Translations under genes and position numbers: made by a program
The notes under the pieces: model-generated
Databases searched by the model: none
Seen by the model: the letters and a program-made list of their open reading frames with translations, nothing else
What the model was told of the DNA's origin: nothing
NCBI GenBank assembly: GCA_902799075.1
Contig: CADBYZ010000038.1
Location: forward strand, 1-48,195
Direction: 5' to 3'
Length of the DNA: 48,195 bases
Source: Oscillospiraceae bacterium
GTDB lineage: Bacteria > Bacillota > Clostridia > Oscillospirales > Oscillospiraceae
Shown here: positions 11,887 to 47,398 of the stretch, in pieces
Layout of the letters: every line of letters starts with the position of its first letter
Numbering within the stretch: position 1 is the first letter of the stretch

Positions 11887-12690
11887 ATGAAAGAAAGCAG
11901 AAGAACGAGATTCTATCTGGATAAGACCGGCTTCTTTGCCGAGAGCGCCATGATCTTCCTGGCCCTCGCCATCGTGTTTCGCATCATCGGCTGCTTTACG
12001 CTCTGGGGCAACAAGGTGGATTTCCTCATGCTGCTGGTGCTGCCGGTGTGCGCCTGCCTGCTGATGATCCTGTGCATCCTGATCTTCGGAAACAAGGGCT
12101 TTTTCCTGTCCTTTATCCCGTTACTGCTGGGCCTTGCGTTCTTTGCCTTCAAGCTTTTGTTCAGCACAAGCTGGGTTACCACCGTCCTGCGCCTTGTGCT
12201 GTATGTGGCGATTGCGGTGATCTACACGGCCACGGTGATCGGCTGGATCCATACCAAGTGGCTGCTGCCGCCGCTGTTCGGCCTGCCCTTCCTGTACCAT
12301 GTGTTCGTGCAGGATATCCCCGCGCTGATGAATACCGCCGAGCCCGTGACCTTCTCCGCCGGCATGGATGAGCTGAGCATTCTCGGCATCATCGGGGCCA
12401 TGTTCTGCGTCGGTATCGGTCTTAAAAAGCGCGCCCCCAGACAGAGAAAGCGCCGGAAGGATGCCGACACGCCCGCCGAGGAAGCCGCGCCTGCTCCCGC
12501 CGAGAGCGCGCCTGCCGCCCCGGCTCCGGCCGAGACGCCGGTGATCGCGCCCGCGCCCGCCCCGTTTGTGCCCGAGCAGTCGCCCATCCTCTCCGATTCG
12601 CCCTATACCCCGGTGCTGACGCTCGACCCCGATCCCGTGGAGCCGGAGCAGAGCGCGGAGAATACGAGCGGCGAGAACGGCAATGAGTAA
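11887..12690 (+). CDS. Membrane protein with proline/alanine-rich tail
   Basis: The protein of 267 residues is not recognised as a named family. The first 175 residues hold about six hydrophobic segments. The rest, about residue 185 onward, is a Pro/Ala/Glu-rich cytoplasmic-like tail with APAPAP and PAEE runs. The ATG at 11887 is chosen over an upstream TTG because the ribosome binding site AAAGGTGG lies just before it and overlaps the TTG frame. The stop overlaps the start of the LRR gene by eight bases, so the two are probably co-translated and may act together at the membrane. Confidence 0.6.
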   Translation: MKESRRTRFYLDKTGFFAESAMIFLALAIVFRIIGCFTLWGNKVDFLMLLVLPVCACLLMILCILIFGNKGFFLSFIPLLLGLAFFAFKLLFSTSWVTTVLRLVLYVAIAVIYTATVIGWIHTKWLLPPLFGLPFLYHVFVQDIPALMNTAEPVTFSAGMDELSILGIIGAMFCVGIGLKKRAPRQRKRRKDADTPAEEAAPAPAESAPAAPAPAETPVIAPAPAPFVPEQSPILSDSPYTPVLTLDPDPVEPEQSAENTSGENGNE

Positions 12691-21889: not shown

Positions 21890-23437
21890 ATGCCGCAGCG
21901 TCTGAAAAAAATATCCGGCGGTGTGGAGAAGACCGCCTCCATGATCGTTCTGGTGCTGGTCTTCGCCTTTATCCTGTACCTGGCGCTGTACTCGCTTTTT
22001 GAGACAAGCTTTCTGAGCTCGGACGATCCCTCCGGCGAGCGGATCATCTATTACAACGACAACGCTTTCCTCAGCATCATCCTCCTCACGATCCTGCTTT
22101 TGGCGGGCTACCTCTTCTACCGCCGCTGTGATCCCATCAATCCCCGCACCATGGAGAAGGTGCTGCTGGTGTGGACCTTCCTCTTCGGCACGGTGTATAT
22201 CGCCACGACGAAGCTGCGCGCCCCGGTTTTCAGCGACTCCTTTCTCGTGACCTACGGCGCCCAGCGGGCCGCGCTGGGGGATTATGCCATGCTGGAGGAG
22301 AACTATTTTTACCGCTTTCCCTTCCAGCTGGGCTATGTGCTGTATTCGGAGATCTTCTTCCGCATTGTGAATATCGCCCTGCGCGGGGAGCCGGAGGGCT
22401 ACGCCGTCCTCGCTTTGCAGGAGGTGAACCTCCTCTGGCTGCTTGCCGAGTTTCACGCCCTCATCGCCATCACGGGGCTGCTGTTCAAGGACGCGCGCAT
22501 CCGCAGAATTCTGATGCTGATGCTCTTTTTCTGCCTCCAGCCGATTCTGACGACACCCTATCTCTACGGCAACATCCCGGCCTTCTCCTGCGGGACGATC
22601 GCGGTGTGGATGTTCCTCCGGCATATCAAAAAGCGCAGCCTCAAGTGCGGCCTCCTCTGCGCCGCGTTTTTGACCCTGGGCGTCACGCTCAAGCTGAATC
22701 TGCTGATCTTCTGCGTGGCGGTCGGCATTGTGTGGTGCGTCATGCTGCTCAAAAAGCCGTCGCGCCGCTCACTTATGTGCCTGCTTCTCGCCGCGGCCTG
22801 CGTGCTCACGATCCCGAAGCTGCCGCAAAAGCTCTATGAGCACCGCGTGGGCGTGCGTTACGGCAAGGGCATCCCCATGATCGCCTGGATGGCCATGGGC
22901 TTCAGCTACGGCCACGCCGCCCCCGGCTGGTACCGGGAGGACTATACCGTCGCCGCCTTTGAACACAGCGGCCACGATACCGCCGCCACCGCCGAAAACG
23001 CGAGAAGGGTGCTGGCAGACCGCCTCTTCGTCTTCAGAACCGACCCGGCCCTTGCACGCAGCTTCTTCGGCGAAAAGCTCCGCAGCCAGTGGAACGAGCC
23101 GAGCTACGGCTCCGTCTGGCTCAACCAGGTGTTCCCGAGCTACAGCATGAAGGGCATGCTGTATGTCATCCTCTGCGGCGTCGGGGCCAGGTGGACCCTG
23201 GACGTGATGAACGTCTATCAGCAGTTTGTGTTCTTCTGCCTGCTGCTGGGCCTCATCCGCCTGACAAAAAAGAAGGATCTGCTGCGCTGCCTGCTGCCGC
23301 TGATCCTGCTGGGGGGCCTTCTGTACCATCTTCTGTTCGAGGCCAAGAGCCAGTACGCCCTGCCGTACTTTGTGATGATCCTGCCCATCGCGGCGTATGG
23401 GCTGTTTACCCTGTACCGAAAGGTTGAGTTTCGATAA
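21890..23437 (+). CDS. Polytopic membrane protein, probable GT-C-type glycosyltransferase
   Basis: The 515-residue protein has about eleven hydrophobic segments. A conserved-looking extracytoplasmic stretch after the third (TKLRAPVFSDSFLVTYGAQRAALGDYAMLEENYFYRFPFQ) and a C-terminal membrane bundle resemble the Mannosyltransferase/ArnT-like GT-C fold. These use lipid-linked sugars outside the membrane. The assignment rests on topology and on the neighbouring GtrII-like gene rather than a clear catalytic motif. GGGAGGCGGG supports the start. Its stop (TAATG) overlaps the start of the next gene by one base. Confidence 0.6.
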   Translation: MPQRLKKISGGVEKTASMIVLVLVFAFILYLALYSLFETSFLSSDDPSGERIIYYNDNAFLSIILLTILLLAGYLFYRRCDPINPRTMEKVLLVWTFLFGTVYIATTKLRAPVFSDSFLVTYGAQRAALGDYAMLEENYFYRFPFQLGYVLYSEIFFRIVNIALRGEPEGYAVLALQEVNLLWLLAEFHALIAITGLLFKDARIRRILMLMLFFCLQPILTTPYLYGNIPAFSCGTIAVWMFLRHIKKRSLKCGLLCAAFLTLGVTLKLNLLIFCVAVGIVWCVMLLKKPSRRSLMCLLLAAACVLTIPKLPQKLYEHRVGVRYGKGIPMIAWMAMGFSYGHAAPGWYREDYTVAAFEHSGHDTAATAENARRVLADRLFVFRTDPALARSFFGEKLRSQWNEPSYGSVWLNQVFPSYSMKGMLYVILCGVGARWTLDVMNVYQQFVFFCLLLGLIRLTKKKDLLRCLLPLILLGGLLYHLLFEAKSQYALPYFVMILPIAAYGLFTLYRKVEFR

Positions 23438-24924
23438 TGACAAGGGAAATCAAAATCCCGGCTGCCGCGGCCTGGCGGGAAAACCGCGCGCCCTTTCTCG
23501 CGGCGCTGCTCGTCGGCCTTGCCGCCCACGGCTACGCGTTTACCAACAAGCTGCTCAATCACGACGAGATCGAATCCCTCTTCGGCAAGGGCGCGACCGT
23601 GACCTCCGGCCGCTGGGGGCTGGAGCTTGTAAAGGTCCTCTTTCCAGACTGGTCCATGCCCTGGATCTACGGCCTTGTGAGCCTTCTGCTGATCGCGGTC
23701 TCCGCCTGCCTGATGCTGAAGCTCCTGGATATCCGCGCCCCGCTTTCGCGCCTGCTGCTGCCGGCGCTGATCGTGAGCTTCCCGTCCCTCACCGGGAATT
23801 TCTGCTTCATGTTCACAAGCTCCGCCTACGCCTGGTCCTTCTTCCTGGCAACTCTTTCCGTATACCTGTTTCGGGACGGAGAGCTTAGGCGCGGCCTTCT
23901 GAGCGTCCCGCTTCTGGTGCTGGCGCTGGGGATCTACCAGGCATATATCTCGGTCGCGGCCTGCCTCTTCCTGCTGCTCATGCTTCGGGATGCACTTGAC
24001 GGGGAGAGGAGCGTGCCGGAGATCATCCGCTTCGGGGTCAAGGCCCTGGCTATGATGCTGCTGGCCATCGGTCTGTACTATCTGGTTACACAGCTGGTGT
24101 TTCGCGTCACCGGCGCGGAATTTAACGACTATGTAACGGAGAATGTAAACGGCTCCGTGAGCCTGCCCCGCCGGGTGCGCATGGCATACGACGCCTTTCT
24201 CTATATCTTCTCTTTCCGCAATTTTTATCTCATCACCACCGAGTTTTCCCGTTATCTGCACATTGCCCTCGGCCTGCTGACCGTGGGGGCGATCACGTAC
24301 CTTGCCCTGCGCGGCGGAAAAGCGTCGCACGCGGCGCTCGCCCTGTGCCTGCTTGCCCTGCTGCCTCTCGGGATCTGCTGCATGTTTCTCATCATGTCGC
24401 GCGAGTCCATCCACACCCTGGTCATGTACAGCTTCGTGAGCGTGTATCTGCTTATGGGGCTCGCGGCCGAGCGCCTGGACCGGAACCGGGCGCCGCGGCT
24501 GCTGGCCCTGCCGCTTGCGGTGGTCGTGACGGCGAACGTATACTTTGCCAACATGTGCTACCTCAAGCAAACACTGCAATATGAAAACGCCCGCGCCTTT
24601 TATACGGTGCTCACCGCCCGGGTACAGAGTACGCCGGGCTTTGACGAGAGCTGCTCGCTTGCTCTGGTGGGGCGGCAGGAAAATCTGCTGCATTCTTTCC
24701 CGGAGATGGACACCGATCTTTTCATGGGCGTAAACCCCGAGCTTGTGAACATCTATTCCCGCGAAAACCTGATCCGCTATTACCTCGGCCTCGATATCCC
24801 CTTTGCGGAGAAGGCGGCGCTTGAAAAACTGGAGACCGACCCCCGCGTGCTGGAAATGGCGGAATACCCCTATGACGGCTCGATCCGCAGGATCGACAAT
24901 ATGCTCGTGGTCAGGCTGGGATAG
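23437..24924 (+). CDS. GtrII-like glucosyltransferase-domain membrane protein
   Basis: The 495-residue protein has about eleven hydrophobic segments. Its N-terminal loop, YAFTNKLLNHDEIESL followed by TSGRWGLELVKVL, matches the start of glucosyltransferase GtrII-type proteins. There a conserved acidic residue and GRW precede transfer of glucose from a lipid carrier to a surface polymer. The C-terminal 110 residues are soluble. It is translationally coupled to the preceding polytopic protein, so the pair probably decorates one envelope glycan. The polymer cannot be told from sequence. Confidence 0.75.
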   Translation: MTREIKIPAAAAWRENRAPFLAALLVGLAAHGYAFTNKLLNHDEIESLFGKGATVTSGRWGLELVKVLFPDWSMPWIYGLVSLLLIAVSACLMLKLLDIRAPLSRLLLPALIVSFPSLTGNFCFMFTSSAYAWSFFLATLSVYLFRDGELRRGLLSVPLLVLALGIYQAYISVAACLFLLLMLRDALDGERSVPEIIRFGVKALAMMLLAIGLYYLVTQLVFRVTGAEFNDYVTENVNGSVSLPRRVRMAYDAFLYIFSFRNFYLITTEFSRYLHIALGLLTVGAITYLALRGGKASHAALALCLLALLPLGICCMFLIMSRESIHTLVMYSFVSVYLLMGLAAERLDRNRAPRLLALPLAVVVTANVYFANMCYLKQTLQYENARAFYTVLTARVQSTPGFDESCSLALVGRQENLLHSFPEMDTDLFMGVNPELVNIYSRENLIRYYLGLDIPFAEKAALEKLETDPRVLEMAEYPYDGSIRRIDNMLVVRLG

Positions 24925-36807: not shown

Positions 36808-38589
36808 ATGTACATCTTTCCGGAAGATATGAGACGGTATTATGAGAGCAGCCCGCTCTCCTTTGTGTATTATGAGGTGAAGGACGAAGTGGCCGTGCCG
36901 CTGCTCGCATCGGACGGCTTCTGCAAGAATGTCGGCGTTGACCGGGAGCATCTGTTTCCGTGGCTGTCGAGCGGGATGTTCGAGCGCATGCACCCGGATG
37001 ATGTGGGCGTGGTATCCAAAATCAGCCGGGACTTCATGCGCCGCGAGGGACCCTATGACGTGATCTTCCGCTGCCGCCTCGGCGGGGACTACCAGTATAT
37101 CCACGGCTACGGCAAGTGGCAGCGCATGCCCGACGGGGAGGAGCTCGCGGTGATCGGCTACCTGAACGTCACGGAGACAAAGGATAAGATGATCACCATT
37201 ACGCAGAACTACGATCTGTTCCGTAAGGATCTGTTTTACAGTGACCCGCTGACAGGCCTGCCGAATCTCAACTATTTCCACGAGTTCGGCGATGAGCGGG
37301 CGCGCGTGCTGTATGCGCAGGAGAAAAAGCCGGTGCTGCTGTTTGCCGACATCTATTCCATGCAGTCCTACAACAACCGCTACGGCGTGCAGGAGGGCGA
37401 CGAGCTTCTGCGTCTGGCGGGCGCTTCCCTGAAGGCGTCCTTTCCGGATGCGCTGCTGGTGCGCGGGGCCATCGACCGCTTCATCCTCATCACCGAGCTT
37501 ACAAGCCCTGAGGAGCTCACCGCCGGGATCCAAAAGGCAAACGCCAGGATCAAGAACGAGGCAAAGGGAATCACCTCCGGTATCCGCGTCGGTATCTGCG
37601 AGATCGGCGAGAACCAGAGCGCCACCGAGGCGCTGGATCACGCCCGCCATGCCATGCGCCGCATCAATAACGACCTGACGCGCACCTGGGCGTTCTTCTC
37701 CCAGGCGGCGGATGATCTCTACTGGAAGAAGCGCTATATTATCGAAAACTTTGACCGGGCGCTGGAAAAGCGTTGGATCAAGGTCTATTATCAGGGCATC
37801 ACCCGCGTCAGCTCTCAGAAGATCGCGGCGATGGAAGCGCTGGCCAGATGGGTGGATCCGGTGCGCGGCATCATCTCCCCGGCGGATTTCATCCCCACCC
37901 TGCAGGAGTATCACCAGCTTTACAAGCTCGATCTCTACATGTTCGAGCAGGTGTGCCGGGAGATACCCATACGCCACAAAAACGGGCTGCCGATCGTGCC
38001 GGTATCGGTGAACTTCTCCCGTCAGGACTTTGACCACATGGACATTGTGACCAGCATGAACGCGCTTTACGAAAAATATGAGCTTTCCCGTTATGTGAGC
38101 AAAGATTTCTTTATCGTCGAGATCACCGAGCAGGACATGGCCATGGGCGCCGAGCGCTTCCGTGAGCAGCTCCGGCACATCCAGGAAAACGGCTACGGCC
38201 TGTGGCTGGACGACTTCGGCAGCGGCTACTCCGCCATCAACATGTTCAGTCAGTTTCAGTTTGACCTCATCAAGTACGACATGGAGCTGCTGCGCCACCT
38301 GGAGGATAACGGCGGCATCAACCGCGTCATCCTCCGGGAGCTTGTGCAGGTCGCAAAGAAGCTGGGGCTGCATACACTCATCGAGGGCCTGGAGGATACC
38401 GACCAGCTCAGCTTTGTGCGAGGCATCGAGTGTGAGCTTGCGCAGGGCTACTATTATTCCCGGCCCGAGCCGCTGGACGATCTGCTGTTTCGCATCAGGG
38501 GCGGGCAGCCGGTAAAGGACTACGAGACCCCCGAGGAGCGGGCGGTCTTCCGCAGAAGCTGGCAGGGAGACAACGAAAGTGAAAAGTGA
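36808..38589 (+). CDS. PAS-GGDEF-EAL protein: probable c-di-GMP phosphodiesterase
   Basis: The 593-residue protein has an N-terminal PAS-like sensor (about 10-125), a GGDEF-fold domain (about 140-300) and an EAL domain (about 310-575). The GGDEF site is degenerate, reading RGAIDRF (219-225), so cyclase activity is unlikely. The EAL domain keeps its catalytic set: E343-A-L-A-R, the Asn of SVNFS, EITE, DDFGSG (468-473), LIKYD, EGLED and AQGYYYSRP. It should therefore cleave c-di-GMP, with the GGDEF part perhaps sensing GTP. No transmembrane helix is seen. Its 3' end runs into five copies of a 7-bp repeat. Confidence 0.88.
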   Translation: MYIFPEDMRRYYESSPLSFVYYEVKDEVAVPLLASDGFCKNVGVDREHLFPWLSSGMFERMHPDDVGVVSKISRDFMRREGPYDVIFRCRLGGDYQYIHGYGKWQRMPDGEELAVIGYLNVTETKDKMITITQNYDLFRKDLFYSDPLTGLPNLNYFHEFGDERARVLYAQEKKPVLLFADIYSMQSYNNRYGVQEGDELLRLAGASLKASFPDALLVRGAIDRFILITELTSPEELTAGIQKANARIKNEAKGITSGIRVGICEIGENQSATEALDHARHAMRRINNDLTRTWAFFSQAADDLYWKKRYIIENFDRALEKRWIKVYYQGITRVSSQKIAAMEALARWVDPVRGIISPADFIPTLQEYHQLYKLDLYMFEQVCREIPIRHKNGLPIVPVSVNFSRQDFDHMDIVTSMNALYEKYELSRYVSKDFFIVEITEQDMAMGAERFREQLRHIQENGYGLWLDDFGSGYSAINMFSQFQFDLIKYDMELLRHLEDNGGINRVILRELVQVAKKLGLHTLIEGLEDTDQLSFVRGIECELAQGYYYSRPEPLDDLLFRIRGGQPVKDYETPEERAVFRRSWQGDNESEK

Positions 38590-38763: not shown

Positions 38764-38797
38764 TGTGACAGTTGTGTGACAGAAGCTGTGCTATGAT
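38764..38797 (+). promoter_or_regulatory. TGTGACAG direct-repeat promoter, copy A
   Basis: TGTGACAG occurs at 38764-38771 and 38775-38782 (11-bp period). Nine bases later comes TATGAT (38792-38797), preceded by TGTGC as an extended -10. No -35 hexamer has proper spacing, so an activator bound to the repeats is expected. It precedes the first GG-leader LysM gene. Confidence 0.75.
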
Positions 38798-38843: not shown

Positions 38844-39068
38844 ATGAATCCTATCAACGATCAGGACATGTCCAAGGTCGCCGGCGGCGGCGCAAACGGC
38901 AACTTCTGGCAGGAAGGCGCTGCGATCTACTACCGCATCGCTCCCCGGGATACCCTCTCTGAGATCGCCCTGCGCGCGCAGGTCCCCATGAGCCAGATCC
39001 TGGCCCTCAACCCCAGCATCAAGAACCCCGACGTCATCAGCGCCGGTGCCGTCATCCGCATCCGCTGA
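38844..39068 (+). CDS. Double-glycine leader peptide with LysM domain, copy 1
   Basis: The 74-residue product starts with a bacteriocin-type leader, INDQDMSKVAGG. Relative to the cleavage point after Gly15, hydrophobic residues fall at -4 (V12), -7 (M9) and -12 (I4), as peptidase-C39 exporters require. The mature part, about 59 residues, is a linker and one LysM domain (YYRIAPRDTLSEIALRA, ALNPSI, ISAGAVIRIR). LysM binds N-acetylglucosamine glycans, so the processed peptide should bind peptidoglycan or chitin-like polymers outside the cell. AAGGAGA is seven bases before the ATG at 38844; longer upstream starts lack a site. The leader/LysM combination recurs at 41877 and 47192. Confidence 0.8.
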   Translation: MNPINDQDMSKVAGGGANGNFWQEGAAIYYRIAPRDTLSEIALRAQVPMSQILALNPSIKNPDVISAGAVIRIR

Positions 39069-39078
39069 GTCATTGAAA

Positions 39079-39116
39079 GCAAAACAGCGAAGGCAGAAAT
39101 GCCTTCGCTGTTTTGC
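39079..39116. terminator. Strong bidirectional terminator after LysM peptide 1
   Basis: GCAAAACAGCGAAGGCA pairs perfectly over 17 bp with its inverse around GAAA. The stem carries A/T runs on its outer part, so it can stop the LysM gene and the minus-strand HAD operon. Confidence 0.88.
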
Positions 39117-39118
39117 GC

Positions 39119-39745
39119 TTATGCGCCGAATAGCTTACACAGCTCCGAAAGGTCACGCGCCACATGGCTCTCATATCCCGTGGGCTCTGTGGGACTGCCC
39201 GGGACCAGAAGCAGGATGCCGCCGATGGAAGCGTTTCGGGCGGCCTCCATGTCGAGACTGCGGTCGCCCACATAATAGCATTGCGCCGGGGCGAGCGCGT
39301 ATTTTTTCATCAGATACAAAATCGCGTCGGGCGCGGGCTTGCGGGGATAGCCGTCCAGGGCGGTCACGATCTCGGTAAAATACGGCAGCAGGCCGCAATT
39401 TTCCAGGATCGCCCGGCAGGAGGCGCCGCGGTGGGTGTACACAAAATGCCGGTGCCCCGCCTTTTGAAGGCGCGAAAGCGTCTCAAGCGCGTGGGGCATG
39501 GGGCGGATCTTTTCGATGCGTGTGTCGTTGAGCTCCTGAAAGCGCGCCTTGACGGACGCCGTGTGCGGCGTGTCGAGGCTTTCAAGAAAGCTCCCCACGG
39601 AGGTTTTGATCACATTCCGGTACACCGTGTCGGCGTCGATGGCGTACCCATATTCCGCGCAGGCGTCGATGACATTCGGGATAATGGCGGGGTAGGAGTC
39701 CACCAGCGTCCCGTCCATATCCCAGAGAAAGGAAAGACTCTCCAT
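39119..39745 (-). CDS. HAD-family phosphatase
   Basis: The 208-residue protein has the HAD nucleophile motif DMDGTLVDS (9-17), motif II THRG with its conserved Thr, a KPAPD motif III Lys and the GDRSLDME motif IV. The helical cap after motif I is that of the phosphoglycolate phosphatase/pyrophosphatase subgroup. The substrate is probably a small phosphorylated metabolite. The ATG at 39745 is chosen over a GTG at 39763 because GGAGG lies eight bases before it. It is the last gene of an operon with a glycosyltransferase and a GtrA-like protein. Confidence 0.82.
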   Translation of the reverse strand: MESLSFLWDMDGTLVDSYPAIIPNVIDACAEYGYAIDADTVYRNVIKTSVGSFLESLDTPHTASVKARFQELNDTRIEKIRPMPHALETLSRLQKAGHRHFVYTHRGASCRAILENCGLLPYFTEIVTALDGYPRKPAPDAILYLMKKYALAPAQCYYVGDRSLDMEAARNASIGGILLLVPGSPTEPTGYESHVARDLSELCKLFGA

Positions 39746-39759
39746 GCCGTTTGCCTCCG

Positions 39760-41070
39760 TCACCGGGCCGATTCCGCGCGCAGGCGGCGCAGTATGCTCC
39801 CGTCGATGCGCCGCTGAAATTCGAGATACTGTGAAAGCTCCTCGTCGCTGAAGCCGTCAAAGCAGACCGCGTCCATGTCCCGGTCGAGCTGCCGCAGCTC
39901 TTCCCGCAGCTCCGGGGCCTGGAAGACAAAGACATCGCTCTGCCCGCTAACAAGCTGCCGCCGCACAAGGCCCTCGGCCATCAGGCGGGCCAGGGCGACA
40001 AGCGCCGCGGTTTTGCCGAGGCCGGTCAGCGTACACAGCGTCTCCGTCGTGCAGGGCACGCCAAGCTTGTCCATGCAGTAGAGAAGCCTGACCGCGGCCC
40101 CGTCCAGACTGTGCCTGCGGCCGATGCTCTCCATATAGCGCGTCAGCAGTCTGTTGCGCAAAATCGCGCTGCGCAGGGGGGAGTTCTCTTCGAGCCCCTC
40201 GGACAGGGCGGACAGGCCGCCGCCGTCGCCCAGCTTCTTCGTGCCCGGCATGAAGGACAGCGCCAGACTGTCACGGCTCACGGCCAGCAGATAGCTGTAG
40301 ATCACCGGCAGGCGTTCTTTATAATCGGGCGTTTCAAAGGTGCTCCTGAAAAAGTCGTTGTAATAGCCGATGACGCTTTTCTTCATCTTCACGGTGGCGT
40401 TCAGATTCAGACTCTGATCCACCAGGGAGCCCTTCGTATATTGGTAATAGTAGACCGGGGCCTTCAAAACCGCGATCGCCTGGACGTGCAGGAGGTATTC
40501 GAGGTTGAAGATCATGTCCTCGCTGTAGCTGATGCTCTCATCCATGCGGATGCTGTACAGCTCGATGATCTCTCGCCGGTAGAGCTTGTTCCACAGTACG
40601 CCGAAGTAGAGGTCCGCCGGGCCGAGCATCATCTGGTCGGCGTAGGCGCGCAGGGAGAGGATGCCTCCCTTTTCGATGGCGCCCTTTTTGGACACATTCC
40701 CTTCCACGACGCGGTAGAAGTCGCCCACCACGAGCTGGGCGCCGCTTGCCTCCATCTCCCGCACCATGAGCTTGGTCGCGTCCATGGGCAGCCAGTCGTC
40801 CACATCCGCAAACTGGATATAGGTGCCGCTCGCCTCCGAAAGCCCGCGGTTGCGGGCGGAGGAGACGCCGCCGTTTTCCTTGCGGACGAGCTTCACACGG
40901 CTGTCGCCCGCGGCGATTTTCCGCATGAGCTCGAAGGAGCTGTCCCGGCTCCCGTCGTCCACCAGGATCAGCTCCAGCTCCGGGTAGTCCTGACTGAGTA
41001 TGCTCTCCGCGCAGCGCTCCACGCGCTGCTCCCCGTTATACACGGGTACGATGACGCTGACTTTTTCCAT
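39760..41070 (-). CDS. Glycosyltransferase family 2 with long C-terminal region
   Basis: The first 230 residues of this 436-residue protein are a GT-A domain: VSVIVPVYNGEQ, LVDDGSRDSS (37-46), ENGGVSSARN and the DVD metal site within FADVDDWLP (88-95). The final 100 residues look different. A segment near 345-400 (LLYCMDKLGVPCTTETLCTLTGLGKTAALVALARLMAEGLVRRQLV) has the spacing of a winged helix, an odd addition to a glycosyltransferase. The ATG at 41070 is used since residues upstream of it have no homology. It begins four bases after the GtrA-like gene. Confidence 0.82.
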   Translation of the reverse strand: MEKVSVIVPVYNGEQRVERCAESILSQDYPELELILVDDGSRDSSFELMRKIAAGDSRVKLVRKENGGVSSARNRGLSEASGTYIQFADVDDWLPMDATKLMVREMEASGAQLVVGDFYRVVEGNVSKKGAIEKGGILSLRAYADQMMLGPADLYFGVLWNKLYRREIIELYSIRMDESISYSEDMIFNLEYLLHVQAIAVLKAPVYYYQYTKGSLVDQSLNLNATVKMKKSVIGYYNDFFRSTFETPDYKERLPVIYSYLLAVSRDSLALSFMPGTKKLGDGGGLSALSEGLEENSPLRSAILRNRLLTRYMESIGRRHSLDGAAVRLLYCMDKLGVPCTTETLCTLTGLGKTAALVALARLMAEGLVRRQLVSGQSDVFVFQAPELREELRQLDRDMDAVCFDGFSDEELSQYLEFQRRIDGSILRRLRAESAR

Positions 41071-41074
41071 GCGA

Positions 41075-41605
41075 TCAGTCCTTTTTGAACAGTACGAATT
41101 TTTCCAGCGGGAACAGCACCGCCAGCTGCACATACCCCGCAGCCATGGCGGCGATGGTCCTTGCCAGCGGCGCGAGGGCGGTCACGGAGAGCTTTGCCGT
41201 GATGAACCCCTGCAGCCAGGTGGAAAACAGGATCAGCAGGGCGATGATCACGAGATAGGCGATCAGTCCCGCCCGGCTGCCCCTGCCGCGGAAGGTGGTC
41301 TTCATGTTCATATAGTAGCCGAAGATATTGGCGATGAAGTTGGAAAGAAAGAAGGGGAGCACATAGCCCCAGGTGACCACCCCGTCCACCACATAGCGGC
41401 TCGGCCCCTCAAACAGGGCCTCGGGCCGGAACACCGGGCGCAGCAGCGGCGGCAGCTTCGCTGTCACGCCGTCGAACACCAGCGGCAGGAGATTGGCAAG
41501 CGCAAGCTGCACCAGCGTGATGCCGGTGGAGACGAGGTTAAACTTGATAAACTGCCAGAGCGCCGCGTCGCCGTAGCGGGCGTCCAGCTTTTTGAGCACT
41601 GACAT
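41075..41605 (-). CDS. GtrA-like membrane protein
   Basis: The 176-residue protein has about four hydrophobic segments (roughly 24-44, 85-102, 118-136, 145-168) and the GtrA-like features FIKFNLVSTG near the start and NFIANIFGYYMNMKTTF in the middle. GtrA-family proteins are thought to flip or present lipid-linked sugars for a partner glycosyltransferase, and one is encoded four bases downstream. A loop of about 30 residues between the first two segments is longer than usual. It heads the minus-strand operon behind a near-consensus promoter. Confidence 0.75.
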   Translation of the reverse strand: MSVLKKLDARYGDAALWQFIKFNLVSTGITLVQLALANLLPLVFDGVTAKLPPLLRPVFRPEALFEGPSRYVVDGVVTWGYVLPFFLSNFIANIFGYYMNMKTTFRGRGSRAGLIAYLVIIALLILFSTWLQGFITAKLSVTALAPLARTIAAMAAGYVQLAVLFPLEKFVLFKKD

Positions 41606-41675
41606 GCGCCATCCTCATGTATACCGATAGTAAAAGGCCGCACCCGCTCACGGCAGGACACGGCAATGTGATTTG

Positions 41676-41703
41676 ATTATAACATGCTTTCCCACACTGT
41701 CAA
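41676..41703 (-). promoter_or_regulatory. Promoter of the GtrA-glycosyltransferase-HAD operon
   Basis: On the minus strand TTGACA (41703-41698), a 16-bp spacer and TATAAT (41681-41676), both consensus hexamers. Confidence 0.8.
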
Positions 41704-41711
41704 GGACGGAA

Positions 41712-41759
41712 ACGAGCGCGTCGGGGTGAATCCATGTACGAGCGCGTCGGGGTGAATCC
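41712..41759. repeat. 26-bp-period direct repeat
   Basis: A 22-bp block beginning ACGAGCGCGTCGGGG is present at 41712-41733 and again at 41738-41759, four bases apart, between divergent promoters. Confidence 0.9.
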
Positions 41760-41764
41760 GTGGC

Positions 41765-41793
41765 TTGTAAAATCGGGAAAAAGCAAGTATAAT
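41765..41793 (+). promoter_or_regulatory. Possible upstream promoter of LysM peptide 2
   Basis: TTGTAA (41765-41770), a 17-bp spacer and TATAAT (41788-41793) lie just upstream of the TGTGACAG repeats. Confidence 0.55.
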
Positions 41794-41810
41794 GTTCTGC
41801 GGAAAAAACG

Positions 41811-41844
41811 TGTGACGGATCTGTGACAGTCTGTGTGATAAACT
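41811..41844 (+). promoter_or_regulatory. TGTGACAG direct-repeat promoter, copy B
   Basis: TGTGACGG (41811-41818) and TGTGACAG (41822-41829) are 11 bp apart. Nine bases later is TAAACT (41839-41844) behind TGTGA. The spacing is identical to copies A and C. Confidence 0.7.
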
Positions 41845-41876
41845 GGGCGTATCATGGATCTAAAGAGGTAAACACT

Positions 41877-42113
41877 ATGAACGGAACGAAAAACACCATG
41901 CTTAAGGCACTTGATGACGACGCTATGCAGCAGGTCTCCGGCGGCGCGTACAACGGGGCGGTATTCATGTACACCCTCCAGCCCGGCGACAAGCTTTCGG
42001 TGCTGGCCCACCGCTTCGGCACGACGGTGCGCGTGCTGCAGGAGCTGAACAATCTCACCGATGACCCCGATCAGCTCCGGCCCGGCAGAACGATCATGAT
42101 CCCCCAGCGATGA
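41877..42113 (+). CDS. Double-glycine leader peptide with LysM domain, copy 2
   Basis: The 78-residue product has the leader LKALDDDAMQQVSGG with V20, M17 and L12 at -4, -7 and -12 before the cleavage point after Gly23. The mature part is a LysM domain (YTLQPGDKLSVLAHRFGTTVRVLQELNN, then LRPGRTIMIP), with GDKLS where most LysMs have GDTLS. AAGAGG lies before the ATG at 41877. Its stop overlaps the start of the YdcF-like gene by four bases, so the two products are made in linked amounts. It shares its upstream regulatory repeats with copies 1 and 3. Confidence 0.82.
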   Translation: MNGTKNTMLKALDDDAMQQVSGGAYNGAVFMYTLQPGDKLSVLAHRFGTTVRVLQELNNLTDDPDQLRPGRTIMIPQR

Positions 42114-43576
42114 AGAGAGCTTCCGAAAAGCGCGGCCCGGTCATTTTATTGAAGCTTCTGGCGGCGGGCATCGCGTGGCTGCTGGTGTTCCTCCTGTGCC
42201 TGCGCATCGGCGGCGGGGGACTGACGCTCTTCTTCGAGGTCCCGCCGGACGCGGACGGCTACGCGCTGACCTTCTCGCCGGAGGGGATCGCGAAGGCCTC
42301 ACAGATGAAGACCTCCGCCGACGGGACGGAGCTTGCGGTCCGGCTCGCGCCTGTAAGGCACGGGGAGACGGACGCCCTGCTCCACTGGGACGGGCTCGGC
42401 GAGCAGAGCCTGTACGACAGCGACATCGAAAGCCATATCCGCTCGCTTCCCGGCGGCATCCTCTTTGACGACATCACCTGGAATTTCAGCGGCTGGGAGC
42501 TCTTCACGGCCTGTTTTTTCCTGTTTTTGCTGACGGCCGCCGTGATCTTTTTCCTGGAATCGAGGCGGGAGAGAAAGCGCGTCTTCTTCTCCTACCGCGC
42601 CACCGCCGAGCTCGGCATTGCGATCTTCCTGCTGGTGGCAAGTCTTCTGCGTGTCGATATGCTCTACGGCTTCCTGCGGGGCGAAAACGCGGGGACAGTG
42701 TGGTCCTTCCTGGTGAGCACCATCGTCACGGCCCAGACCTTCGTGCGCCGCACCGCTTTCGTGATCGTGGGCTTTGCCCTGGTGACGGCGGCGAGCAATT
42801 TCGTCCTCATGCGCCATGAGGGGGTGCGGCCCGCCAATATGCTGGGGCTCGCGGTGTCGCTCGTGATGGTGGGGGGCGCGGCCCTCGGCATCTGGATGTC
42901 AAGGTCTATGCTGCAGTTCCCGCTCAGAAACGTCCTGCTCAATGTGTACGCGGGGCTGTTCGTGTACTTTGAGTGCCTGCTTGCCGCCACGATCATCCGC
43001 TCCGTGATGGCTGGGCGGCACGAACCGGCTTACGACAAGGACTATGTGCTGGTCCTCGGCTGCCGCATCCGGCCCGACGGGACGCTCTATCCGCTCATCC
43101 GGGGCAGGGTGGACCGGGCGATCAATTTTGTAAACGCCCAGTTCAAGGCCACCGGCAAGCGGGCGGTCCTGGTCCCGAGCGGCGGCAAGGGCGGCGACGA
43201 GCCTCTGTCCGAGGGCGAGGCCATGGCCCGCTACATGCGGGAGAAGGGCGTGCCGGAGGAATACATCCTGCCGGAGACAAAGTCCACGACCACGCGGGAA
43301 AACCTCCTCTTTTCCCGCAGGCTCATCGAAGAAAAGGGGAGCGCAGCGCACGCGGCGTTTTCCAGCTCCAGCTACCATGTCTACCGGAGCGGCATCCTCG
43401 CCTCGGAGGTGGGCTGGGACCTTGACGGTATGGGAAGCCGTACCAGATGGTATTTCTGGCCGAACGCGTTTTTGCGGGAGTTTATCGGACTGATGGCGGC
43501 GCAGCGGCTCCAGCAGATGGCCGCAATGGGGGTGATCGTACTGATCACCGCGAGTATCACGACATTGGTAATGTAA
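42110..43576 (+). CDS. YdcF/SanA/ElyC-like (DUF218) envelope protein with extra N-terminal domains
   Basis: In this 488-residue protein the C-terminal part (about 305-480) matches DUF218: DYVLVLGCRIRPDGTLYPLIRGRVDRA, VPSGGKGGDEPLSEGEAMARYM, ESTTTREN-like KSTTTRENLLFS and SSSYHVYRSG. In E. coli, members (ElyC, SanA) act in peptidoglycan or lipid-carrier homeostasis. The N-terminus adds one helix, an extracytoplasmic region of about 95 residues, and about five further helices. Translational coupling with a LysM peptide points to a shared job at the cell wall. The extracytoplasmic region is unassigned. Confidence 0.78.
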   Translation: MKRASEKRGPVILLKLLAAGIAWLLVFLLCLRIGGGGLTLFFEVPPDADGYALTFSPEGIAKASQMKTSADGTELAVRLAPVRHGETDALLHWDGLGEQSLYDSDIESHIRSLPGGILFDDITWNFSGWELFTACFFLFLLTAAVIFFLESRRERKRVFFSYRATAELGIAIFLLVASLLRVDMLYGFLRGENAGTVWSFLVSTIVTAQTFVRRTAFVIVGFALVTAASNFVLMRHEGVRPANMLGLAVSLVMVGGAALGIWMSRSMLQFPLRNVLLNVYAGLFVYFECLLAATIIRSVMAGRHEPAYDKDYVLVLGCRIRPDGTLYPLIRGRVDRAINFVNAQFKATGKRAVLVPSGGKGGDEPLSEGEAMARYMREKGVPEEYILPETKSTTTRENLLFSRRLIEEKGSAAHAAFSSSSYHVYRSGILASEVGWDLDGMGSRTRWYFWPNAFLREFIGLMAAQRLQQMAAMGVIVLITASITTLVM

Positions 43577-43613
43577 TTATAATGTAATCATAAAAGGAAG
43601 GTTGCAGGCAATC

Positions 43614-44120
43614 ATGGCACATGCATGGATCAACAAAGCGTTTTACGAGGCGGTGTGCAGCTTTGAAAAAAGCGAGGCATCACAGGAGTTTTATTACCGC
43701 GTGATGGACGCAGAGGTGGAGCGGGACGGCAGAAAGGACACCGTGCGCAATCAGATCCTGCGCGCCTACGCCATGCTCTTCTGCGACGATATCGGCGCGG
43801 TGGCGGGACAGAAGGCCTCGCCCGAGGATGTGGAGGCCACGGCGGACCGCCTGTATGTGGGCGAGCCCTCCTTTGACCCGAAGCACTGGTACCGCATGCA
43901 GCACCATTTCCCCGTGATCGACGAGGACAACTACGACCGCTTCGCGGCCCTGGTGATCGCGGACCTGAGCGTCGGCCCCCTGCATGACGCGGCGGTCTAC
44001 GGCGGCGAGATGCTGCTGGTCGGCGCGCTCAACCCCCTGGCCCTGAGCCGGGAGGAGCGGAAGAACCAGAAGCTGCGCGTGGTGAAGATCCCCGAGCGGG
44101 CAAGGGAGGAGGACGCATGA
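43614..44120 (+). CDS. Hypothetical protein co-translated with the response regulator
   Basis: I do not recognise this 168-residue soluble protein. It is acidic, begins MAHAWINKAFYEAVCSFEK and contains FDPKHWYRMQHHFPVIDEDNYDRFAALVIADLSVGPLHDAAVYGGE; there is no signal peptide, membrane segment or cysteine pair. The ATG at 43614 is preferred; a TTG at 43602 directly abuts GGAAGG. Its stop overlaps the response-regulator start by four bases, so it may modulate that regulator in place of a missing histidine kinase; this is inference. Confidence 0.6.
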   Translation: MAHAWINKAFYEAVCSFEKSEASQEFYYRVMDAEVERDGRKDTVRNQILRAYAMLFCDDIGAVAGQKASPEDVEATADRLYVGEPSFDPKHWYRMQHHFPVIDEDNYDRFAALVIADLSVGPLHDAAVYGGEMLLVGALNPLALSREERKNQKLRVVKIPERAREEDA

Positions 44121-44929
44121 ACATTCTTGTCGTACACGCCGCGGAGGACGAGCGGGAGAGCCTGCGCGAAATGCTCACCGCGCTCCGGCCTGATGCCGAG
44201 CTGCGCCTTTTCGACAGCGGGCTGACCGCCCTTGCCGACGCCAGAAAGCAGGAGGCGGACATCGCCGTCATCGACACGGAGCTGCCCGAGCTCAGCGGCC
44301 TGGACTTCGGCCAGTACCTGCAGGAGCTGTACCCGGACGTAAACCTCATCTACCTATCCGCGGACAGGGAGGCGGGCTATACCGCCCTGCGGCAGCACGC
44401 GAGCGGCATCCTGCCGAAGCCGGTTGCAAAGCCGGAGCTCACACGGGAGCTCGACGAGCTGCGCCACCCGGCGGTGATGAAGGAGCACAAGCGCGTCTTT
44501 GCCCAGACCTTCGGCAACTTCGAGCTCTTTGTCGACGGCAAGCCTGTGGCCTTCAAGTATAACCGCACCAAGGAGCTGATAGCGGTCCTCATCAATAACC
44601 GCGGCGCCCAGACCAGCAACGGCGAGATCATTGCCTGCCTCTGGGAGGACGACGGCGACCCGGAGAAGAAGGCATCCTATCTGTCCAATCTGCGCCAGGA
44701 CCTGCAGAACACCTTCACAAAGCTCAAGCTCAACGGCATCATCCTCAAGCAGCGCGGCAGCCTCGCCATCGCCACCGACCGCATCGAGTGCGATCTCTAC
44801 GACTGGCTCGAGAAGAAGCAGGAGTCCAAGTACCACTACCTGGGCGACTACATGAACCAGTACAGCTGGCCTGAGGTCATGCACGCCGAGCTCGACGAGA
44901 TCGCCTGGTCCTTTGACGACGAGCAGTAA
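44117..44929 (+). CDS. Orphan response regulator with SARP/OmpR-like winged-helix output
   Basis: Residues 1-115 of this 270-residue protein are a receiver domain: acidic E10/D11, phospho-acceptor Asp53 in VIDTELPELSG, Ser81 and Lys101 in LPKP. Residues 131-223 form an OmpR/SARP-type winged helix (FGNFELFVDGKPVAFKYNRTKELIAVL, then WEDDGDPEKKASYLSNLRQDLQ). A short tail (CDLYDWLE, YLGDYMNQYSWPEV) resembles the start of a BTAD domain. Such domains bind direct repeats with 11-bp spacing, exactly the pattern before the three LysM peptide genes around it. No histidine kinase is in the window. The start overlaps the preceding gene by four bases. Confidence 0.82.
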   Translation: MNILVVHAAEDERESLREMLTALRPDAELRLFDSGLTALADARKQEADIAVIDTELPELSGLDFGQYLQELYPDVNLIYLSADREAGYTALRQHASGILPKPVAKPELTRELDELRHPAVMKEHKRVFAQTFGNFELFVDGKPVAFKYNRTKELIAVLINNRGAQTSNGEIIACLWEDDGDPEKKASYLSNLRQDLQNTFTKLKLNGIILKQRGSLAIATDRIECDLYDWLEKKQESKYHYLGDYMNQYSWPEVMHAELDEIAWSFDDEQ

Positions 44930-44957
44930 GATCGGTAAAAAAGTTCACATAATTGTG

Positions 44958-44986
44958 TTCATTTTCCAGCGAGGCTGTGATATAAT
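44958..44986 (+). promoter_or_regulatory. Promoter of the secreted repeat-protein gene
   Basis: TATAAT (44981-44986) behind TGTGA (an extended -10) stands 17 bp after TTCATT (44958-44963). The TGTGA-TATAAT part resembles the -10 region of the LysM promoters, but no TGTGACAG repeats precede it. Confidence 0.6.
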
Positions 44987-45105
44987 GCCTTTGCTGCAAA
45001 GGCAGCGGCTCGCGTACAGCCCCGGATTTACAAAAAGGGGAGAAAACGGGAGTTGCGCACACAGCGCGGGGCGCTGCGGAGAATGAAATGAAAAGGAGAA
45101 GGAAC

Positions 45106-47097
45106 ATGACAACAACGAAGCGCATTTTTGTCTGCCTGCTGGCCATGACCATGCTGGTCTCGGCGGCGGTATGCGGCGGCGTGAGTGCCTGGGCCGAGGA
45201 GCTCAAGCCGGTCACGCTCGAGCCCACGGACATCGACAATCAGCTTGCGTACATCTATTCCCAGATCGGGACCCTCAAGCAGAACGACAGCCAGAATACC
45301 TGGTACTACACCATCACCGACCTTGACCACGACGGCAATCTGGAGTTTGTTTCCGCGTCCCAGCACCCGCAGGACCGCTCCACCAACCTGAAGGTCTGGG
45401 AGGTCAGCAACGACAGAAAGGCTCTTGTGGAATGCAAGCTCGACAAGGACCCGGAGGAATCCTTCCCGGACATCCTCACCGACGTGGCCGACACCTTCCA
45501 CGACACCGCCACCGACACCTGGAACTACCTGTTCTATGACAACGTGGTGCTCTCTCCCACCGATGTCTACACCAGCAAGAGCGCCTATAACCTCAAGGAC
45601 GGCGTCATCAGCTACCAGGCCTACGCCGTGGAGCATACTCAGATCGTAAACGGCGTGAGAAGCGTCAGCCACACCGACGCAAGCGGCGCCAAAATCTCTC
45701 CCGAGCAGTACAACGCCGCCGGCAACAACGCCTTTGCCAATGCCGAGCGCAGCAGCACCAACTTCGAGTGGCTGACCGCCGCGGATGTGAATAATCTCAC
45801 CCGCGTGATCGACAGCTACGCGGTCTTCTCCGGCAGAAAGAATCCGACCGAGGTCTTCCCGGTTCCCAAGCCCGAGGCTCTGACGGCTCCGACCGCCACC
45901 CCCGCACCCGCGGCGACCGCAGCGCCCACCCCTGCACCCACGCCCACGCCCGTGCAGCCGATCTACCTGAGCATCACCAAGAACCCCACCAATGAGAACA
46001 AGACCGAGGGCAGCACCGCCTACTTTGTCTCCTGCGCCAACGCCTATGAGTCCCTGACCTGGACGTTTGTCGGCCCTGACGGCGGCGAGTACTCCGTGCA
46101 GAGCTTCCGCAACATCTTCGGCGCAAGTGTCAGCGGCGAATACAGCACCACCCTTGCCATCGACAACGTCAGCACCAGCATGAACAACTGGGGCGCCTAC
46201 TGCACCTTCTACTACCAGGGCCAGACCGCCCGCACCACCACCGCCTACATGTATGTCAGCGCCAAGAGCAAGCCCGCTCCCAGCGGCACCTACACCGGCA
46301 CTGTCACCGACTGGAACTACAGCAGCGTGACCATCTGGGCCGAGAACACCGTGTCCATCACCATCCCCTTCGGCAAGTGCGACATCGACGGCGACCTCTA
46401 TGTCGGCGCCTATGCCTCCTTCAACTGGAACGGCTCCGATGTGACCTACTGCTACATCTCCGGCAGCAAGCCCTCGCCCACGCCGGAGTACGGCTCCATG
46501 AGCGGCTCGGCCTACGAGTCCGGCGGCGGCTTCACCATCAATCTCGCCAACGGTGTCTCCGTGTATGTTGACGGCTGGAAGTGCAATGTCTACGGCAACT
46601 TCTATGACGGCGCCTCCTGCGTGGCCTACTACAGCGGCTCTATCAGCAATGCCGGCATCTACAGTGTCGACATTTACGGCAGCGAGCAGGTCGGCCCGGT
46701 CTACGGCGATATGAGCGGCTATGCCTATGAGGGCGGCGGCGGATACGCCATCAACCTCTCCAACGGCACGCAGATCTATGTTGACGGCTGGAAGTGCAGC
46801 GTCTCCGGTTACTTCTACGACGGCGCTCCCTGCACCGTCAGCTACATGAACTACCCGAGCTCCGATAACGTCACCTCCGTTGTCATCTACGGCAACTCAG
46901 ACCCCCTCCTCGACCAGGGCGGCTGGGCCGGCTCCCACTACTACGATGACTTCGATATCGGCGGCTGGGCCGGTTCCAACTACTACGACAATGAGTACTA
47001 CGACAGCGAGTTCTACATAATGGACGACGGATCCATTTACCGCGAGGATTACAATTTATACGGAGACGTGATCGGCGGCGGCATCGTTTACAATTGA
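45106..47097 (+). CDS. Large secreted protein with Ig-like and tandem aromatic/glycine repeats
   Basis: The 663-residue protein has a signal peptide (MTTTKRIFVCLLAMTMLVSAAVC, ending near AWA) and a domain of about 230 residues (beginning LEPTDIDNQLAYIYSQIG). A Pro/Ala/Thr linker comes next, then an Ig-like domain (about 285-385). Three repeats of about 70 residues follow (YGSMSGSAYESGGGFTINL, YVDGWKCNVYGNFYDGASC and relatives), each of the last two with paired cysteines. The tail is rich in Gly, Tyr and Asp (two GGWAGS units). No sortase or SLH anchor is visible. AAGGAGAAGG fixes the ATG at 45106. Copy C of the TGTGACAG promoter starts three bases after its stop. Confidence 0.72.
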   Translation: MTTTKRIFVCLLAMTMLVSAAVCGGVSAWAEELKPVTLEPTDIDNQLAYIYSQIGTLKQNDSQNTWYYTITDLDHDGNLEFVSASQHPQDRSTNLKVWEVSNDRKALVECKLDKDPEESFPDILTDVADTFHDTATDTWNYLFYDNVVLSPTDVYTSKSAYNLKDGVISYQAYAVEHTQIVNGVRSVSHTDASGAKISPEQYNAAGNNAFANAERSSTNFEWLTAADVNNLTRVIDSYAVFSGRKNPTEVFPVPKPEALTAPTATPAPAATAAPTPAPTPTPVQPIYLSITKNPTNENKTEGSTAYFVSCANAYESLTWTFVGPDGGEYSVQSFRNIFGASVSGEYSTTLAIDNVSTSMNNWGAYCTFYYQGQTARTTTAYMYVSAKSKPAPSGTYTGTVTDWNYSSVTIWAENTVSITIPFGKCDIDGDLYVGAYASFNWNGSDVTYCYISGSKPSPTPEYGSMSGSAYESGGGFTINLANGVSVYVDGWKCNVYGNFYDGASCVAYYSGSISNAGIYSVDIYGSEQVGPVYGDMSGYAYEGGGGYAINLSNGTQIYVDGWKCSVSGYFYDGAPCTVSYMNYPSSDNVTSVVIYGNSDPLLDQGGWAGSHYYDDFDIGGWAGSNYYDNEYYDSEFYIMDDGSIYREDYNLYGDVIGGGIVYN

Positions 47098-47100
47098 TCG

Positions 47101-47134
47101 TGTGACAGTTGTGTGACAGTTCGTGTGCTATTTT
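47101..47134 (+). promoter_or_regulatory. TGTGACAG direct-repeat promoter, copy C
   Basis: TGTGACAG at 47101-47108 and 47112-47119 (11-bp period), nine bases, then TATTTT (47129-47134) behind TGTGC. Same geometry as copies A and B. Confidence 0.75.
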
Positions 47135-47191
47135 ATATACGCAGGCAGGAAAAACACACAAACACGAATCTTTGAATTGGAGGATAAGAAA

Positions 47192-47398
47192 ATGACGATG
47201 AATAAAAAGGCTCTGAACGACGAAGTCCTGGACGCAGTCGGCGGCGGCACCATTCTCCCGTACCAGGTGAACGCGGGCGACACGCTGGAGAGCGTTGCGG
47301 CACAGTACCATGTCACCGCTGACCAGGTGGCAAAGTGGAACAATCTCCCGAGCAATTCCACCCTGATGCCCGGTCAGACCCTCAAGATCAAGTTCTGA
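47192..47398 (+). CDS. Double-glycine leader peptide with LysM domain, copy 3
   Basis: The 68-residue product starts MTMNKKALNDEVLDAVGGG. With cleavage after Gly19, V16, L13 and L8 fall at -4, -7 and -12 as in the other copies. The mature part is almost entirely one LysM domain (YQVNAGDTLESVAAQYHVTADQVAKWNNL, LMPGQTLKIKF), the most canonical of the three. GGAGG eight bases before the ATG at 47192 sets the start. It lies 94 bp after the secreted repeat-protein gene and is followed by a cyclophilin lipoprotein gene. Confidence 0.85.
   Translation: MTMNKKALNDEVLDAVGGGTILPYQVNAGDTLESVAAQYHVTADQVAKWNNLPSNSTLMPGQTLKIKF

What the first reader, a model, noticed from the sequence alone, without database searches (positions are those of the whole stretch)
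38844..47398. A three-member family of double-glycine leader peptides whose cargo is a single LysM domain
Genes at 38844, 41877 and 47192 each encode a 68-78-residue protein with a bacteriocin-type leader (hydrophobic residues at -4, -7, -12 before GG, acidic stretch near -8 to -10) joined to one LysM domain. Leaders of this type normally carry bacteriocins or pheromones and are cut during export by peptidase-C39 ABC transporters. Using that route for a peptidoglycan-binding module suggests small secreted wall-binding peptides. The bodies differ strongly while leader logic and promoter are kept, so the copies are a maintained paralogous set rather than a recent duplication.
Basis: partly seen in the sequence, partly recalled or inferred. 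Interest (0 to 1): 0.85.

Follow-up and report, generated by a model that had tools for sequence, protein, structure and literature searches.

The report
Bacteriocin-route export of wall-binding modules
A gut bacterium appears to send small, enzyme-free cell-wall-binding proteins out of the cell through an export pump normally linked to antibiotic peptides, and seems to switch them on together from one shared type of promoter.

Summary
Three ORFs (38844-39068, 41877-42113, 47192-47398) each carry a double-glycine leader plus one LysM domain over Pfam's cut-off, behind the direct repeat TGTGACRG-N3-TGTGACAG. Its one detected C39 exporter is NHLM-type. Of 61 genomes of the genus, 32 of 33 with a short GG-LysM match have a C39 peptidase, against 5 of 28 without. 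In 20 fetched stretches, mostly chosen for this linkage, exporter and wall-binder genes lie together. The repeat co-occurs with the window's response regulator (44117-44929): both 19, regulator only 2, repeat only 1, neither 39. Best reading: regulator-controlled, enzyme-free peptidoglycan binders, exported and trimmed by a bacteriocin-type PCAT to coat the cell's own wall. Export, cleavage and binding are inferred. My open-access searches listed no report of such cargo.

The parts
38764..38782 (+). Direct-repeat operator TGTGACAG-TTG-TGTGACAG; -10-like TATGAT at 38792-38797
   Evidence: -10 by eye
38844..39068 (+). GG-leader LysM protein, 74 aa (LysM_C-like); leader 38844-38888
   Evidence: sister-species copy 93% identical
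41811..41829 (+). Direct-repeat operator TGTGACGG-ATC-TGTGACAG; -10-like TAAACT at 41839-41844
   Evidence: -10 by eye
41877..42113 (+). GG-leader LysM protein, 78 aa (LysM_B); leader 41877-41945
   Evidence: counterparts 47-69% identical in the 8 loci shown of 9
42110..43576 (+). Protein with DUF218 domain, start overlaps the LysM_B stop; conserved neighbour
   Evidence: PF02698 E 2.8e-23
43602..44120 (+). D172, conserved protein of unknown fold, overlaps the regulator gene (ATG start probably 43614)
44117..44929 (+). Response regulator with a weakly recognised OmpR/SARP-like winged helix; candidate activator
   Evidence: PF00072 E 2.1e-14, PF00486 15.2 bits below its cut-off; EmbR E 0.0066; co-occurrence with the repeat
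45088..47097 (+). Large protein of the conserved locus; Sec-type start and Ig-like part by eye only
   Evidence: no Pfam match over its cut-off
47101..47119 (+). Direct-repeat operator TGTGACAG-TTG-TGTGACAG; -10-like TATTTT at 47129-47134
   Evidence: -10 by eye
47192..47398 (+). GG-leader LysM protein, 68 aa (LysM_A); leader 47192-47248
   Evidence: LysM fold model

Best explanation
These genes belong to a genome-wide set of small pre-proteins: a double-glycine leader joined to an enzyme-free peptidoglycan-binding module (LysM, CW_7, probably SH3-like) or to a few other small domains. A response regulator encoded in the cluster (44117-44929) binds two TGTGAC repeats 11 bp apart just upstream of an extended -10 and switches the genes on. 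The C39 peptidase of an NHLM-type PCAT, with a partner ABC subunit and a short HlyD-like protein, cuts after GG and exports the mature domain, which binds peptidoglycan non-covalently, most likely the cell's own wall, and coats it. Seen in sequence: leader, domains, exporter with C39 catalytic residues, shared promoter, conserved locus, co-occurrence. Inferred: activation by this regulator, cleavage, export, wall binding and the purpose of the coat.
For: LysM in all three. CW_7 at E 5.8e-29 and 4.3e-15 behind the same kind of leader. Thirteen leaders at E<1e-4 in the genome, plus a second CW_7 protein found by family search and leader pattern. One C39 peptidase found, in a protein over the TIGR03796 cut-off (936 against 853 bits), next to one over the TIGR03797 cut-off (717 against 709). 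Gln22, Cys28, His102, Asp118 and a Walker A motif are present, assigned by eye; PCAT1 and ComA chains match over nearly the whole length (the best E-values there are P-glycoproteins, through the ABC part). Short GG-LysM with C39: 32 of 33 versus 5 of 28, Fisher p 5e-11; in the 23 best genomes both 11, LysM only 1, C39 only 3, neither 8. Of 20 fetched stretches 19 hold C39_ABC1 with LysM or CW_7 genes; the other ends at ABC2. Fifteen repeat sites in the genome against 0 for the pattern read backwards; 11 precede a GG-leader ORF. Regulator and repeat 19/2/1/39, p 1e-12. LysM fold with a low-confidence leader (mean pLDDT 73.5). Precedent for a GG-leader envelope protein: MAM, whose PCAT export rests largely on modelling too (passages).
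Against: No experiment. In this genome the exporter is on contig C2, not beside the window cluster, and the assembly is 75.7% complete, so another exporter may be missing. The genomes are related, so the p-values overstate independence. G059 has GG-LysM genes with the repeat (2 mismatches) but no detected C39 or close regulator; its contig starts 3.4 kb before them. G009 has GG-CW_7 genes and a repeat but no detected C39 or regulator; it is 65% complete. Not every GG ORF in the regulator-bearing stretches has the repeat, and C9 in this genome has none. C39 loci of G038 and G049 carry other small GG cargo and no short GG-LysM or CW_7, so the route is not confined to wall binders. The second ABC protein lacks an exact LSGG motif. 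bacteriocin_sig scores below its cut-off (13.9 and 14.5 against 15.7). The 38844 gene has dN/dS 0.92 between sister species, on 8 changes only.
Confidence: 0.7

Rival explanations
1. Anti-lysin shield: the exported modules occupy the wall sites that phage endolysins, host lysozyme or rivals' hydrolases bind, as fungal LysM effectors protect chitin.
For: CW_7 (24%) and LysM (23%) are the most abundant binding domains of human gut phage endolysins (PMC13284279, passages), the two modules recognised most clearly here. Foldseek lists, at E 0.058, a secreted LysM effector titled as protecting hyphae against chitinase.
Against: No link to phage or lysozyme was tested. The cargo also includes PepSY, zinc-ribbon-like and unknown domains.
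Confidence: 0.15
2. Bacteriocin: the mature LysM or CW_7 peptides act on neighbours' walls as antimicrobials.
For: Bacteriocin-type leader and NHLM-type exporter. Sub-cut-off hits to bacteriocin families on some leaders.
Against: The cargo matches ordinary binding domains. No immunity or modification gene was among the genes compared, but I made no systematic search for one.
Confidence: 0.07
3. Spore or forespore wall proteins that stay inside the cell; the GG is coincidental.
For: Weak hits to SafA and SpoVID LysM models; the genome has spoVAD next to the exporter genes.
Against: SafA scores 25-29 bits against a cut-off of 67.85; GG invariant in 24 of 24; linkage and co-occurrence with C39.
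Confidence: 0.05
4. The repeat is bound by another regulator, and 44117-44929 merely travels with the locus.
For: Distant homologues of the regulator occur in many of these genomes. G059 and G009 have repeats without a detected orthologue.
Against: The repeat (best site at most 2 mismatches) is in 12 of 12 fetched stretches with the orthologue and, at up to 3 mismatches, in 0 of 8 without it, although GG genes and exporter are present in those 8. Within short-GG-LysM genomes the counts are 19/2/0/12.
Confidence: 0.2

Closest known systems
NHLM export cassette (TIGR03794/03796/03797), Haft et al. 2010, PMC2887384 (passages)
   Same: C39 ABC1 and peptidase-free ABC2 over the curated cut-offs; precursors may lie away from the exporter
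   Different: Leaders of about 15-23 aa, not NHLP/Nif11 type; cargo is wall-binding domains; HlyD-like protein short and far below cut-off
MAM of Faecalibacterium duncaniae with its PCAT, PMC12184118 (passages)
   Same: Gut bacterium; GG leader, neighbouring PCAT, envelope protein rather than bacteriocin
   Different: MAM has no known domain and a MMMPAN leader signature; here the cargo is LysM and CW_7 modules in a multi-gene set with a shared promoter
PCAT1 (structures 4ry2, 6v9z) with its CtA substrate
   Same: Exporter matched over residues 18-720
   Different: CtA is not a LysM protein (recalled)
SARP activators (AfsR, PMC10936776, passages)
   Same: Direct repeats 11 bp apart close to the -10; winged helix distantly like EmbR
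   Different: Here joined to a receiver domain; about 9 bp rather than 8 bp to the -10; binding not shown
Fungal secreted LysM effectors (listing)
   Same: Secreted LysM modules that bind wall glycan
   Different: Chitin rather than peptidoglycan, other secretion route (recalled)

Membership tests
LysM domain proteins | Match over the Pfam PF01476 cut-off and LysM fold | tested here: met
   38-54 bits against 20.9; model of 47192 with PDB LysM matches, two at E<=0.001
Double-glycine leader (C39 substrates) | L(-12), acidic, L/M(-7), V(-4), GG | tested here: met
Double-glycine leader (C39 substrates) | NCBIfam TIGR01847 bacteriocin_sig over its cut-off | tested here: not met
   13.9 (window 41877) and 14.5 (L020) against 15.7; no hit for the other two GG-LysM proteins tested
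Double-glycine leader (C39 substrates) | Cleavage after GG on export | not testable with these tools
   needs mass spectrometry or an in vitro protease assay
NHLM export cassette | TIGR03796 and TIGR03797 over cut-off, adjacent genes | tested here: met
NHLM export cassette | TIGR03794 HlyD-like protein over cut-off | tested here: not met
   28.2 bits against 156.2; 173 aa against a 421-position model
NHLM export cassette | NHLP or Nif11 precursor leader | tested here: not met
   no such model among the hits of four GG-LysM proteins at E up to 1
Class II bacteriocin | Core peptide of a bacteriocin family over cut-off | tested here: not met
   cargo is LysM or CW_7; Bacteriocin_IIc, Lactococcin and L_biotic_typeA hits and lactGbeta_entB are all below cut-off
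Class II bacteriocin | Dedicated immunity gene | not tested
   no systematic search made
MAM | MMMPAN...VxGG leader signature | tested here: not met
   absent from the 12 leaders (by eye)
SARP | OmpR-like winged helix plus direct repeats 11 bp apart next to the -10 | tested here: inconclusive
   Trans_reg_C 15.2 bits, below 26.2; EmbR E 0.0066; repeat geometry; binding untested

The most novel reading that the evidence does not exclude
A gut bacterium runs a dedicated, regulator-controlled secretome of catalytically empty endolysin-type binding modules (LysM, CW_7, SH3-like) through a bacteriocin exporter, and these decoys protect its wall from phage lysins and lysozyme.
Probability: 0.15. Interest if true: 0.9.

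Novelty: new variant of a known kind. Interest (0 to 1): 0.7.

Why it matters
Double-glycine peptides with C39 exporters are usually read as bacteriocins or pheromones. If confirmed, this shows such an exporter serving cell-wall decoration, so other GG ORFs in gut Clostridia may be mis-sorted. It also gives a promoter signature and a candidate activator that make the gene set testable, and a possible way in which some gut bacteria withstand wall-binding lysins.

Tried and rejected
Considered and rejected or set aside. (1) LysM-only family: rejected, since leader and promoter also serve CW_7, PepSY, zinc-ribbon-like, perhaps SH3-like and unknown cargo. (2) Spore LysM proteins: sub-cut-off hits only. 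(3) Fold of D172: mean pLDDT 76.8, no PDB match at E<=0.001. (4) SH3: the C73 protein is below the SH3_3 cut-off (17.5 against 27), as is a relative's protein (23.9); the C46 protein had no SH3 hit in Pfam and one PDB match at E 0.53. (5) dN/dS against the sister species: 0.08 for LysM_A, 0.45 for LysM_B, uninformative for 38844. (6) Literature on LysM with a GG leader or PCAT: searches found no paper; one search listed 9 of 9, 20 of 41 and 10 of 17, none on this judged from titles and abstract starts. The library is open-access only. (7) The repeat at C22 before a GtrA-like gene was left as doubtful.

Limits of the counts. The 61 genus genomes are a sample of a larger group. The 33 short-GG-LysM genomes were counted by hand (E<=1e-9, match starting in the first nine model positions, ORF up to 205 aa); the leader itself was read in sequence only in fetched loci. 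The sets were transcribed by hand. One search fetched 20 stretches from 20 of the 33 genomes; 19 were chosen because LysM and C39 hits shared a contig, so they show how the locus looks, not how often it is linked. The lists are cut at their weak end. The C39-positive genomes without short GG-LysM were only partly examined: G038, G044, G049 and G051 in one stretch each, G021 not at all; G051 has a GG-CW_7 gene beside its exporter, and no GG ORF was found by pattern in the G044 stretch.
Full report
WHAT IS THERE. Three short ORFs in the window each join a double-glycine leader to a single LysM domain. Two are 34% and 27% identical to the third. Each lies behind TGTGACRG-N3-TGTGACAG, which at up to 3 mismatches occurs in the window only there (the minus-strand match lies on the first site). 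In the 11 sites laid out the distance from the second repeat to a -10-like hexamer is the same.

THE GENOME. The host assembly is 2.41 Mb in 116 contigs and 75.7% complete. It has nine LysM matches; six are short GG-leader proteins (C38 three, C9, C15, C57) and three lie in larger proteins. A leader-only profile finds 13 proteins at E<1e-4, and two more at E 0.16 and 0.93. One further GG-CW_7 protein was found by family search and leader pattern. The cargo of these 14: LysM six; CW_7 two; PepSY one, over its cut-off (26 against 24 bits); SH3_3 one, below cut-off (C73); zinc-ribbon-like one, below cut-off; three without a firm assignment (C4, C27, C46). The repeat TGTGAYN5TGTGAY occurs 15 times, against 0 for the pattern read backwards. 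Eleven sites precede GG-leader ORFs. The other four precede a Sec-type Ig-like protein, a TlpA-like protein, a zinc-ribbon membrane protein and a GtrA-like gene (identities by eye). Of the 13 leaders, two lack a site of their own: C9 and the second gene at C57.

THE EXPORTER. One C39 peptidase was found. Its protein passes TIGR03796 and its neighbour passes TIGR03797; the HlyD-like protein is short and far below cut-off. It aligns with PCAT1 and ComA over nearly its full length. Gln22, Cys28, His102 and Asp118 fit the C39 pattern (by eye, from the residues named in PMC12184118). The partner ABC protein has a Walker A motif but no exact LSGG.

RELATIVES. Of 61 genomes of the genus, 33 have a short GG-LysM match and 37 a C39 peptidase; 32 have both, 1 (G059) only the first, 5 only the second, 23 neither. 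In the 20 fetched stretches the recurring order is HlyD - C39 ABC1 - ABC2 - LysM_B - DUF218 - D172 - regulator - LysM_C - Ig-like - LysM_A - CW_7, with losses and rearrangements; 8 of the 20 lack the regulator. The window holds the run from LysM_B to LysM_A, without LysM_C between the regulator and the Ig-like gene; its exporter is on another contig, as in the sister species G027. CW_7 was found in 28 of 61 genomes, in ORFs under 190 aa apart from G020 with 412 aa. In 300 genomes of the family, short matches that include the leader, at E<=1e-9, appear only in this genus and one other (g84, three genomes; GG leader read in fetched stretches of those three). In 391 genomes of the class, the listed part shows none outside the host; three listed matches that span the leader columns are in 524-aa ORFs. 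Named relatives (L087-L114) are MAGs titled Oscillospiraceae, Ruminococcaceae, Clostridiales, Clostridia or Eubacteriales, several from ruminant gut. The host itself is not named.

THE SWITCH. Orthologues of the window's regulator (65% identity or more) occur in 21 of 61 genomes and the strict repeat pattern in 20; 19 have both. In the 20 stretches, all 12 with the regulator have the repeat before at least one GG ORF (best site at most 2 mismatches), though not before every GG ORF; none of the 8 without it has one at up to 3 mismatches. G059 and G009 have repeats without a detected regulator; one lies near a contig start, the other is 65% complete. SARP activators bind direct repeats 11 bp apart with the downstream repeat 8 bp from the -10 (PMC10936776, passages); here it is about 9 bp, depending on where the repeat is said to end. 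The regulator's winged helix is only weakly matched to known families.

HOW IT LIKELY WORKS. Regulator activates; pre-protein is made; C39 cuts after GG; ABC1 and ABC2 export; the mature domain binds peptidoglycan. CW_7 recognises a GlcNAc-MurNAc-dipeptide (PMC5705596, abstract and one section); LysM is a general wall-binding motif (PMC6403190, passages). All steps from activation onward are inferred. A coat on the cell's own wall is the simplest purpose; a shield against lysins is the boldest reading not excluded.

AGAINST. Incomplete assembly; related genomes; stretches selected for linkage; G059 and G009; GG ORFs without the repeat; some short leaderless LysM ORFs at family and class level that I did not examine; and C39 loci in G038 and G049 with other small GG cargo, so this export route is not confined to wall binders.

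Noticed in passing
L072:10323-10703 (-): A 126-aa LysM protein with two double-glycine leader-like motifs in tandem.
   Followed up: no
L163 (G049) and L167 (G038): PCAT loci with several small GG-leader ORFs of other, partly cysteine-containing cargo and similar leaders.
   Followed up: partly
window 43602-44120: D172: strongly conserved, overlaps the regulator gene, no Pfam family and no PDB fold match.
   Followed up: partly
window 45088-47097: Large Ig-like protein (by eye) with a Tyr/Asp-rich C-terminus; a similar-looking protein on contig C37 has the repeat promoter.
   Followed up: partly
L031 / G000:C48:9310: Repeat promoter before a TlpA-like secreted protein (by eye), 1.2 kb from a GG-PepSY gene.
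   Followed up: no
L151 (G000:C3:11243-11281): Weak leader hit (E 0.16) to a 102-aa GG ORF with cysteine pairs.
   Followed up: no
window 36808-38589: GGDEF-EAL protein with a sub-cut-off PAS match.
   Followed up: no
window 12683-14461: 592-aa leucine-rich-repeat protein.
   Followed up: no
window 23437-24924: GtrII-type glucosyl transferase; with GtrA (41075-41605) and a family 2 glycosyltransferase (39760-41133) it hints at surface glycan modification.
   Followed up: no
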